Part shown: one piece after another, positions 21,389 through 22,560 of the stretch | How the letters are laid out: each line of letters begins with the position of its first letter | How positions within the stretch are numbered: the first letter of the stretch is position 1 | Assembly: GCF_002994745.2 (NCBI RefSeq) | Contig: NC_037090.1 | Span: forward strand, 13,752,001 to 13,816,000 | Reading direction: 5' to 3' | Source: Rosa chinensis | Lineage: Eukaryota > Streptophyta > Magnoliopsida > Rosales > Rosaceae | DNA length: 64,000 nucleotides | Made by a program: the position numbers and the translations under genes | Notes under the pieces: model-generated | Seen by the model: the letters and a program-made list of their open reading frames with translations, nothing else | Told to the model about the DNA's origin: nothing | Databases searched by the model: none

Positions 21389-22075
21389 CTAAGCCATGTC
21401 TGCATCTCCGTAGGAGTTGAGGCTGAGCTCAAGGGAAATGCGAGAGCCACCGCCATAGCCGCTACCTCCCTCGGAAGTAGTCTTCATGTTGCCAAAGATG
21501 TCCTCACCATGCATGGGGAATAGTGGAAGGGTTTCAATCTCCTGGTGATATTCTCCTCGTTGTTCCATGATCGATCCATCAACACCATAGCCGACACGTG
21601 ACCCAAAATTTAGATCAATGGATCTGTCAGTACTAGTAGAACCAGTGGAACCAAAGTTTAGATCAATGGACCTACCATCATCAGTAGAACTAGTGGATCC
21701 AAAATTGAGATCAAGAGATCCACCAACCCGAACGTTTCGAAATTCCCTCAACTTCTGCCTCTCACGAGCCTTGAGATTCTGGAACCAAAAGAAGACGTTC
21801 TTGCCCTCGATCTGCCCATATTGTTGCAGATGAAGGCAGATCTCTTGAATCTGCTCTGGAGTTGGGGATTTAAGCACCTTGTCATAGTAAAGCTCCTGGA
21901 GGATTCTTAGTTGATCTGGTGTGGGAGTCCACCGGTTATTGGTCAGCCTGATAGGCGTGTTGGCACTACTCCCGGCTGCTTGAATGCTTCCTCCCTCCTC
22001 GGTTGGTTGATGGGCTTGTAATTCCATTTGTTGCTGGGTTTGTAACTCCATTAGTTGCAGAGTTCGTGGTTCCAT
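21389..22075 (-). CDS. WUSCHEL-type homeodomain transcription factor captured in LTR element
   Basis: An uninterrupted 228-residue frame, ATG to TAG. Residues about 47-111 form a WUS-class homeodomain: RWTPTPDQLRILQELYY, then IEGKNVFFWFQNLKARERQK, the recognition helix. Residues 182-188 are the WUS box TLPLFPM and residues 214-219 the EAR-like LELSLN. Both recruit TOPLESS-type co-repressors in known WUS proteins, which act in the nucleus to maintain shoot stem cells. Residues 119-160 hold three copies of S-(L/I)-DLNFGS. Helix 3 has WFQNL where WUS proteins usually have WFQNH. WUS genes usually contain introns and are longer (AtWUS 292 residues, from memory); here the homeobox is continuous. 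It lies antisense to the host element. Not ordinary TE cargo; a functional or very recently functional copy is plausible, but expression is unknown. Confidence 0.9.
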   Translation of the reverse strand: MEPRTLQLMELQTQQQMELQAHQPTEEGGSIQAAGSSANTPIRLTNNRWTPTPDQLRILQELYYDKVLKSPTPEQIQEICLHLQQYGQIEGKNVFFWFQNLKARERQKLREFRNVRVGGSLDLNFGSTSSTDDGRSIDLNFGSTGSTSTDRSIDLNFGSRVGYGVDGSIMEQRGEYHQEIETLPLFPMHGEDIFGNMKTTSEGGSGYGGGSRISLELSLNSYGDADMA

Positions 22076-22560
22076 GTTGATGAAGAAAGGATGTGAGTTT
22101 CGAAAGAAAGGCTGAAGGGTTGAGAGAGAAAGGCTGGAACTCGGAAGAATTTTCTTTTGGAGTGAACAGTCGCTCCCTCAGAATGCACCTATTTATAGAA
22201 CGAGTAAGCATATCTCCACCGTTGGATGGACGATCTCTGAGATTAAATATATGCGTTGGATTAAAGTCACCCGAAAACACGGAAAAGTTGTTGACGCGTG
22301 GAGGACACCTGGGGGAACCAAACGAATCTCGAGGAGCTGTGACAGACAAGCTATAGCCGAAAGCATGCCATAAATCTAGGAAAAGAAAGGACACGTGGGG
22401 GAACCAAACGAATCTCGAGGAGCTGTGACAGACAAGCTACAGCCGAAAGCAGGTCTAATTGCCATAAATCCAGGAAAAGAAAGGAATATTTACGCGTGGG
22501 GGAGTTTTTCATGTGCATACGTGTTTCTTGGGCCGTGAACTGTCATAACTCTTCTCCTTC
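22076..22560 (-). promoter_or_regulatory. putative promoter of the captured WUS-type gene
   Basis: On the minus strand a consensus TATA box TATAAATA (22190-22197) lies about 115 bp upstream of the ATG, so transcription could start near 22160. Further upstream, two direct repeats (22303-22388 and 22389-22484) share GGGGGAACCAAACGAATCTC and the following 60 bp almost exactly. The unit next to 22389 has a G-box CACGTG (22392-22397), which is CACCTG in the other. This arrangement looks like a real promoter captured with the gene. Confidence 0.6.
22303..22484. repeat. tandem duplication upstream of the WUS-type ORF
   Basis: Units of 86 and 96 bp, nearly identical apart from an insertion of about 10 bp (AGGTCTAATT region) in the second and three or four substitutions. 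Confidence 0.9.

What the first reader, a model, noticed from the sequence alone, without database searches (positions are those of the whole stretch)
21389..22560. Apparently complete WUSCHEL-type gene carried inside a recently mobile LTR retrotransposon
Seen: an ATG-to-stop frame of 228 codons with a WUS-class homeodomain, WUS box (TLPLFPM) and C-terminal LELSLN, antisense within an element bounded by two 1975-bp LTRs and an ATGGG duplication. Known: these three modules are what WUS needs to bind DNA and recruit co-repressors, and WUS dosage controls shoot stem cells. Inference: a developmental regulator has been transduplicated and could be spread by a transposon. Retention of all three motifs argues that coding capacity was selected, or that capture was recent.
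Basis: partly seen in the sequence, partly recalled or inferred. Interest (0 to 1): 0.92.

Follow-up and report, generated by a model that had tools for sequence, protein, structure and literature searches.

The report
Stem-cell gene carried by rose retrotransposon
In the rose genome a jumping DNA element carries a gene derived from WUSCHEL, the switch that keeps plant stem cells going; at least 150 copies of this gene exist, most without a stop, and differences between 40 of them show selection on the protein, so the element likely uses the gene to be copied in the cells that would give rise to the next generation.

Summary
Confirmed. The window (Rosa chinensis assembly, C3) holds an 8,950-bp LTR retrotransposon (18192-27141, 1,975-bp LTRs 99.1% alike, ATGGG duplication) with an open antisense WUSCHEL-type gene at 21389-22075. 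It is not a one-off: of 714 genome candidates the best 150 were scored and 136 have no in-frame stop. Twenty of 20 further loci fetched hold the gene in the same element interior; with the window, 8 of 9 with resolved ends have perfect target-site duplications. dN/dS is 0.43-0.65 (20 disjoint pairs, P 1e-10 to 6e-4, by mutation model); by LTR dating most differences predate insertion, so constraint mostly acted while the element was transposing. Native WUS has two introns; 11 of 11 older copies read lack both, and two of these have reverse transcriptase, two RNase H domains and integrase on the opposite strand, so WUS was an antisense accessory gene of a Ty3/gypsy element. The window's element is a young gag-pol-less one whose cargo gained three DLN (EAR-like) repeats. 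This probably explains a published puzzle: 381 'WOX genes' in rose, there put down to whole-genome duplication. What the protein does (likely WUS-type repression in meristem cells) is inferred; published data show almost no expression in rooting cuttings.

The parts
18187..18191 (.). target-site duplication ATGGG, left
   Evidence: identical to 27142-27146
18192..20166 (+). 5' LTR, 1,975 bp, TGATAGG...GCGCATCA
   Evidence: 99.09% identical to the 3' LTR, 18 mismatches, no gaps
20172..20189 (+). primer-binding-site-like TGGCGCCGTTGCCGGGGA, 5 bases after the LTR
   Evidence: sequence; this motif or a close variant upstream of the ORF in 16 of 21 copies; that it is a tRNA complement is recalled
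21389..22075 (-). WUSCHEL-derived transcription-factor ORF, 228 aa, intronless
   Evidence: at least 150 genome copies; dN/dS 0.43-0.65 in 20 disjoint pairs
21746..21946 (-). WUS-class homeodomain, residues 44-110; 47 of 63 residues (48-110) identical to native R. chinensis WUS
21602..21712 (-). three DLNFG (EAR-like) units at residues 122, 138 and 154; native WUS has one SHNFG at this place
   Evidence: two or more DLNF-like units in 43 of 67 Rosa-group rows, none in any of 8 outgroup WUS; 'EAR-like' is recalled
21512..21532 (-). WUS box TLPLFPM, residues 182-188
   Evidence: TLPLFP in 55 of 67 Rosa-group rows
21416..21433 (-). C-terminal EAR-like LELSLN, residues 215-220
   Evidence: no change counted at L215, E216, L217 over 67 rows
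22190..22197 (-). TATA box TATAAATA about 115 bases upstream of the ATG
   Evidence: TATAAA in 21 of 21 copies; promoter activity not tested
22302..22451 (-). tandem duplicate of 64 bp in the upstream region (22302-22365 and 22388-22451, 97%)
   Evidence: parts of 22076-22600 match the upstream region of 5 of 11 older WUS copies (three at E 2e-14, two at 1e-5; 70-77%), none in native WUS
22701..23231 (+). sense ORF of the element, 176 aa, no Pfam domain; the named relatives are from Rosa
   Evidence: 505 genome candidates, 40 scored; dN/dS 0.64-0.83 over all pairs of 21 copies
25152..25166 (+). purine-rich stretch before the 3' LTR (polypurine-tract-like)
   Evidence: sequence
25167..27141 (+). 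3' LTR
27142..27146 (.). target-site duplication ATGGG, right

Best explanation
The ORF is a WUSCHEL-derived transcription-factor gene that rides antisense inside a young LTR retrotransposon without gag-pol, and because its copies differ as purifying selection on the protein would make them differ, it likely works for the element, probably as a WUS-type repressor in meristem cells whose descendants would form gametes. Shown: native WUS has two introns; 11 of 11 older copies read lack both, and 7 of these 11 share one 3' breakpoint; two of the 11 have pol on the opposite strand, with WUS antisense downstream of integrase. Shown: the window's family carries a shortened version with three DLN repeats, the WUS box, the LELSLN motif and an upstream TATA box; at least 150 copies of the gene were scored, and the youngest element dated has LTRs without a mismatch. 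Inferred: capture of spliced WUS RNA, transfer of the unit with its upstream region into the window's family, and mobilisation by another element's proteins. Inferred and untested: the protein is made, binds WUS-like sites, and recruits TOPLESS-type co-repressors through its EAR-like motifs to hold stem-cell state or damp silencing.
For: Cargo is general: interior and WUS ORF in 20 of 20 further loci; a direct repeat over 300 bp on both sides of the ORF in 18 of 21 loci, window included; perfect duplications in 8 of 9 with both ends resolved, window included. Open frames: 30 of 40 copies full length; 136 of 150 scored genome copies without an in-frame stop in the matched stretch (frameshifts not assessed). 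Selection: 20 disjoint nearest pairs give 105.5 synonymous and 149.5 nonsynonymous changes, omega 0.43, 0.51, 0.61 and 0.65 at kappa 1, 2.1, 5.2 and 8, P 1.3e-10, 1.7e-7, 9.4e-5 and 5.9e-4; codon positions 80:72:115, P 0.003. Mean LTR divergence of the 8 dated elements is 0.38%, about 1.3 post-insertion changes per ORF, so by my arithmetic about 52 of the 267 differences in the 20 pairs; the rest arose in the transposing lineage. Protein level: 44 of 252 changes fall on WUS-conserved sites where 90 are expected, P 1e-10. Parent and route: native gene L054 with introns of 86 and 335 bp; L047-L053 and L055-L058 lack both; pol domains on the opposite strand in two. Precedent: antisense ORFs between pol and the 3' LTR mark Retand elements, and a regulatory role is proposed there (PMC11963269, PMC7264820, passages).
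Against: No expression, small-RNA or protein data were at hand. PMC11405225 reports almost no expression of 359 of 364 rose-specific WOX genes during rooting. The ORF is not more alike between copies than the neighbouring non-coding stretch 20467-21066. One of five off-frame controls is also below 1 (0.57, interval 0.38-0.87; the others 0.73-1.30) beside 0.48 (0.33-0.68) in frame. The element's sense ORF is below 1 too (0.64 in 10 disjoint pairs, P 0.007), so the WUS ORF is not clearly singled out. Canonical WUS motifs are not enriched in the LTR. Constraint within the homeodomain alone is weak in the protein test (35 changes against 42.7 expected, P 0.009). The 40 copies were chosen by similarity to the window's ORF, and only 8 elements were dated. 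The two pol-bearing loci share only the ORF with the window's element; its own helper was not found.
Confidence: 0.7

Rival explanations
1. Passive passenger: the gene was swept along by a successful element, has no effect, and looks intact only because the copies are young.
For: LTRs 0-0.92% diverged in 8 elements; ORF identity no higher than adjacent non-coding sequence; one off-frame control also below 1; hardly any expression in rooting (PMC11405225).
Against: By LTR dating most differences between copies are older than the insertions, and omega stays at 0.43-0.65 in disjoint pairs and 0.44 for the 103 pairs under 1.5% apart; WUS box, LELSLN core and homeodomain core kept in R. chinensis and R. 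rugosa copies.
Confidence: 0.16
2. Host benefit: some copies serve the rose (meristem or regeneration control) and host selection keeps them coding.
For: Five of 364 rose-specific members showed counts above 10 in three or more rooting stages (PMC11405225).
Against: Constraint is seen over 40 dispersed copies rather than at one or a few loci; scored copies sit in blocks of some chromosomes and are nearly absent from others.
Confidence: 0.06
3. RNA role: the antisense transcript, not the protein, matters, by making dsRNA that regulates the element or silences native WUS.
For: Antisense orientation; PMC7264820 discusses antisense transcripts and dsRNA in other elements (passages).
Against: A protein-level constraint is not expected; the homeodomain part is only 80% identical to native WUS DNA, poor for cross-silencing.
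Confidence: 0.08

Closest known systems
Antisense additional ORFs (aORF-3R) of Retand/Tat LTR retrotransposons: Grande gene23, RIRE2, PvRetro13, TRP28 ORFs (PMC7264820, PMC11963269; passages seen)
   Same: ORF antisense to gag-pol, downstream of pol in two older loci here, with its own upstream promoter (predicted here), family-wide rather than single-copy, DNA-binding product (predicted).
   Different: For those ORFs PMC7264820 names no host-gene parent and argues that they are not transduced genes; here the parent is WUSCHEL. The window's element has no gag-pol.
Rose-specific 'RcWOX' clades I-V (PMC11405225; abstract, passages and sections 17, 24, 25 read)
   Same: The motifs that paper quotes for clade V (HQBIBTLPLFPMHGEDILGNMKTTSEGG, SHISLELSLNSYRDADMA) and clade IV (YGQIEDKNVFFWFQNLKA) occur in this family, for example in P0015.
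   Different: That paper treats them as genes, proposes whole-genome duplication while finding zero collinear genes, and its text holds no word beginning 'transpos'.
Gene capture by plant LTR elements: maize Bs1, tomato Rider (PMC13317346, passages)
   Same: Host coding sequence carried in an LTR element.
   Different: Here the cargo is a complete transcription-factor ORF, antisense, amplified, and under coding constraint within the element family.
Retroviral oncogene capture (recalled)
   Same: An intronless copy of a host growth regulator carried by a retroelement.
   Different: No infection and no phenotype shown here.
WUSCHEL, WUS-clade WOX proteins
   Same: Homeodomain, WUS box and LELSLN.
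   Different: Central region replaced by DLN repeats; N-H-K of the recognition helix is N-L-K; intronless; carried on an element.

Membership tests
LTR retrotransposon (window element) | paired LTRs with TG...CA ends, target-site duplication, primer-binding site, polypurine tract | tested here: met
   the primer-binding site and polypurine tract by sequence only
LTR retrotransposon (window element) | own gag-pol (autonomous) | tested here: not met
   of the five ORFs of 100 aa or more between 18192 and 27141 only the WUS ORF has a Pfam domain above cut-off; shorter or broken frames not searched
Ty3/gypsy Tat/Retand lineage | RT plus two RNase H domains, integrase after RNase H, antisense ORF downstream of pol | tested here: met
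   for two older loci only: order of pol and WUS in L056+L061 and L058+L062, domains RVT_1, RT_RNaseH_2, RVT_3 and rve in L058/L062. That the second RNase H marks Tat is recalled; no RT tree was built; their LTRs were not found
Ty3/gypsy Tat/Retand lineage | the same for the window's own element | tested here: inconclusive
   no pol; only the WUS ORF is shared with the pol-bearing loci; an upstream module is shared with 5 of 11 older copies, not those two
WUS-clade WOX protein | WUS-class homeodomain, WUS box, EAR-like end, tree placement | tested here: met
   67 rows (47 R. chinensis with the window, 17 R. rugosa, 3 unnamed) form one side of a branch (100/96) against 8 outgroup WUS; the native gene itself was not a row
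WUS-clade WOX protein | DNA binding, TOPLESS recruitment, stem-cell activity | not testable with these tools
   needs bench work
Processed (RNA-derived) gene copy | loss of the parent's introns at exact positions | tested here: met
   older copies L047-L053 and L055-L058, 11 of 11, lack both introns; in the window copy the intron-bearing middle is deleted
Processed (RNA-derived) gene copy | homology starting at the transcription start and a poly(A) tail | tested here: inconclusive
   in L047 and L049 homology runs to 220 bases upstream of the native ATG, transcription start unknown; the 3' end stops about 7 codons before the native stop in 7 of 11, no tail seen

The most novel reading that the evidence does not exclude
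A plant retrotransposon lineage took over the stem-cell master regulator WUSCHEL, much as retroviruses take oncogenes, rebuilt it with extra repression motifs and its own promoter, and uses it across the rose genus to act on the very meristem cells that yield gametes; the rose 'WOX expansion' is this selfish gene.
Probability: 0.38. Interest if true: 0.94.

Novelty: new variant of a known kind. Interest (0 to 1): 0.82.

Why it matters
It gives the antisense accessory ORFs of plant LTR retrotransposons, whose functions and mostly whose origins are called unknown (PMC7264820, passages), a case with an identified host parent and a predictable activity, so the question becomes directly testable. 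It also offers a simple explanation for hundreds of rose 'WOX genes', warns that annotation pipelines count transposon cargo as developmental genes, and raises the possibility that a selfish element manipulates plant stem cells.

Tried and rejected
Direct self-activation of the element by known WUS sites (motifs recalled): TGAATGAA, TTAATGG, TCACGTGA and TTAAT[GC][GC] not enriched in LTR or interior; TGAANGAA in the LTR (3 against 1.0 expected, 11 of 200 shuffles as high) and CACGTG in the interior (4 against 0.75, 11 of 200) and in 22076-22600 (2 against 0.09, 9 of 200) were somewhat high. Regional identity as evidence of selection: rejected, a neighbouring non-coding stretch is as alike. dN/dS against native WUS over the whole ORF (0.49-0.76 for the window): not relied on, because the middle does not align and homeodomain (dS 0.45-0.74) and C-terminus (0.07-0.09) have different histories. 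Direct capture of native WUS by the window's element: set aside for a two-step history. LTRs of the pol-bearing elements: not found; a search with the 1,370 bases upstream of WUS in L056 listed no second near-identical copy in that element (40 of 524 candidates scored).

Papers: searches listed no paper whose title or abstract start links WUS or WOX copies in rose to a retrotransposon (one search listed 25 of 747; most listed papers were not opened). The library holds open-licence papers only; supplements were not searched. Searches were used for context.

Full report
Observation. The minus-strand ORF 21389-22075 has 228 codons, longer than any ATG ORF in 500 dinucleotide shuffles of the element's interior (longest 186). 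It has a Pfam homeodomain; its best solved relatives are WUSCHEL and STENOFOLIA. An AlphaFold model is confident only in the homeodomain (ten-residue blocks from 51 to 110 at 87-94 pLDDT, whole-chain mean 58) and matches WUS bound to DNA at TM 0.90. LTRs of 1,975 bp at 18192-20166 and 25167-27141 differ at 18 sites; ATGGG flanks the element on both sides. Of its five ORFs of 100 aa or more, none but the WUS ORF has a Pfam domain above cut-off.

Source. The window is G000:C3:13752001-13816000 of a 515-Mb assembly. Rosa chinensis proteins in the database sit on contigs of 88,556,329 and 70,290,800 bases, the lengths of C2 and C7 here, so this is R. chinensis; C3 (49,724,142) is slightly shorter than the contig of the window's own database protein (49,737,312).

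A family, not a single event. The protein search returned 660 hits, 120 listed; the best are R. chinensis and R. rugosa proteins, then WUS of Argentina anserina (43%) and Fragaria vesca (42%). Forty-seven R. chinensis clusters, window included, stand for 316 database entries. In the assembly the ORF DNA has 654 candidates, of which the best 40 were scored, all 89-100% identical; the protein has 714 candidates, the best 150 scored and listed, 136 of them without an in-frame stop in the matched stretch. I fetched 20 further loci at 9.4 kb: 20 of 20 hold the element's interior around the ORF; with the window, 18 of 21 show a direct repeat over 300 bp on both sides of the ORF (none in L010, L019, L023; weak or partial in L015 and L025). 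Strict end-finding resolved 9 of 21, window included, with 8 perfect 5-bp duplications and one with a mismatch. LTR divergence in 8 of these 9 is 0 to 0.92% (L014 not dated), at most about 0.35 My at 1.3e-8 or 0.65 My at 7e-9 per site per year (rates recalled); L020 has no mismatch and one gap.

Coding constraint. Of 40 copies (the window, 20 loci, a second copy in L010, 18 ORF-only), 30 have a full-length frame. Over 20 disjoint nearest pairs there are 105.5 synonymous and 149.5 nonsynonymous differences: omega 0.43, 0.51, 0.61 and 0.65 at transition weights 1, 2.1, 5.2 and 8, P 1.3e-10, 1.7e-7, 9.4e-5 and 5.9e-4; differences at codon positions 1, 2 and 3 are 80, 72 and 115. Dropping the one pair with 70 differences gives 0.41-0.58, the 30 open copies 0.44-0.63, the 10 broken ones 0.52-0.73 with P 0.003 to 0.09. 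Over all pairs of the 40 at weight 2.1, omega is 0.48 (0.33-0.68); five off-frame readings give 0.57 (0.38-0.87), 0.73, 1.02, 1.18 and 1.30, so one control is also below 1. The element's own sense ORF gives 0.64-0.83 over all pairs and 0.64 in 10 disjoint pairs (P 0.007): milder, but not clearly different. The 8 dated elements average 0.38% between LTRs, which is about 1.3 post-insertion changes per ORF or some 52 of the 267 differences in the 20 pairs (my arithmetic; the other copies were not dated). Most differences thus arose in the transposing lineage. At the protein level, changes avoid sites conserved in 120 WUS proteins from outside the rose-strawberry group: 44 of 252 against 90 expected at the 95% threshold, 79 against 116 at 90%; within the homeodomain alone the effect is weak (35 against 42.7, P 0.009). 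Results against: the ORF is not more alike between copies than the non-coding stretch 20467-21066, and copies were chosen by ORF similarity.

Parent and history. Native WUS is at C2:11711808-11713125: three exons, introns of 86 and 335 bp, 299 aa, 93% identical to Argentina WUS over exon 1. Eleven older copies (L047-L053, L055-L058) run straight across both intron positions; in L047-L053, 7 of 7, homology ends at native position 2797-2799, about seven codons before the stop, and the window's ends at 2796; L055-L058 stop at 2721-2784. This points to capture of spliced RNA, most simply once. Two 6.5-kb stretches (L056+L061, L058+L062, 96.4% alike) carry pol-type frames on the strand opposite to WUS; in the second these are a reverse transcriptase, two RNase H domains and an integrase, followed by the antisense WUS gene. 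L059 carries an aspartic protease on the strand opposite to WUS; in L060 I recognised no element gene. WUS was thus an antisense accessory gene downstream of pol in at least these two. The region upstream of WUS in L056 has 524 candidates, 40 scored, on all seven chromosomes; by comparing the printed lists, 29 of the 40 have a listed WUS match within 1.5 kb (the list is capped). The window's element shares only the ORF with the two pol-bearing loci, and an upstream module with 5 of the 11 older copies (three at E 2e-14, two at 1e-5); L053 also has 380 bp 87% identical to window 20318-20690. So the unit seems to have moved with its upstream region into a second, gag-pol-less family. There the middle of the protein was lost and a single GGSISHNFGS became three DLNFG repeats; two or more such motifs occur in 43 of 67 Rosa-group rows and in none of 8 outgroup WUS. 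On the tree these 67 rows form one group against the outgroup, with R. chinensis and R. rugosa interleaved (at least five changes forced by well-supported branches), so the family is older than that split.

How it may work. TATAAA lies about 115 bases upstream of the ATG in 21 of 21 copies, which predicts an independent minus-strand transcript. The protein keeps the WUS box, LELSLN and the homeodomain core; residue H of the recognition helix N-H-K is L, so target choice may differ. My reading: a WUS-type repressor made in meristem cells that favours the element's passage to gametes. That descendants of shoot stem cells are progenitors of germ cells, where transposon insertions must be avoided, is stated in PMC7560203 (start of abstract seen). 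No expression evidence was available, and PMC11405225 reports almost none for 359 of 364 such genes in rooting.

Relation to print. PMC11405225 counts 381 rose WOX genes, 364 in rose-only clades, 170 in R. multiflora and 105 in R. rugosa, and proposes whole-genome duplication while finding no collinear genes within rose. Its clade IV and V motifs occur in this family. PMC6499834 says no signs of recent whole-genome duplication were found in R. chinensis (passage). The genome paper PMC6786968 mentions an abundant Tat-like family with an ORF after pol assigned to a transposase domain, and its main text holds no WUSCHEL, WOX or homeobox (passages). Six searches listed no paper linking the two; most listed papers were not opened.

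Noticed in passing
G000 chromosomes: The 150 scored copies lie in blocks: 91 on C2 (all but one beyond 33.9 Mb), 19 on C3 (0.85-15.9 Mb only), 12 on C7 (3-18.7 Mb), 16 on C1 (11 at 55-67 Mb), 7 on C4, 1 on C5, 2 on C6, 2 on small contigs (chi-square 217 over C1-C7), whereas the older WUS-bearing family is on all seven chromosomes. This may mark ancestry blocks of a hybrid genome in which only one progenitor had the burst; untested.
   Followed up: partly
43913-45892: Solo LTR of the same family, about 90% identical to the element's LTRs, with TTGGG on both sides.
   Followed up: partly
32768-42421: A second young LTR element, LTRs 99.8% alike, with copia-type polyprotein frames at 36775-39426, 39371-40006 and 40003-40551 (type judged by eye).
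   Followed up: no
L010 (C4:25339922-25349308): Two copies of the element interior in inverted orientation around a short centre, each with its WUS ORF, one open and one with a stop.
   Followed up: no
window 21389-22075 against native WUS: Homeodomain part differs from native at dS 0.45-0.74 but residues 173-220 only at 0.07-0.09, suggesting exchange or conversion between lineages.
   Followed up: no
22701-23231: Sense ORF of 176 aa without known domain; the named relatives are from Rosa, 505 genome candidates, 40 scored.
   Followed up: partly
L053: An older-type intronless WUS copy with 380 bp 87% identical to window 20318-20690 beside it, a possible link between the two element families.
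   Followed up: no
L060 and window 22302-22451: Upstream modules of the cargo gene are repeated in tandem or at a distance in several copies, as if the promoter region were being rearranged.
   Followed up: no
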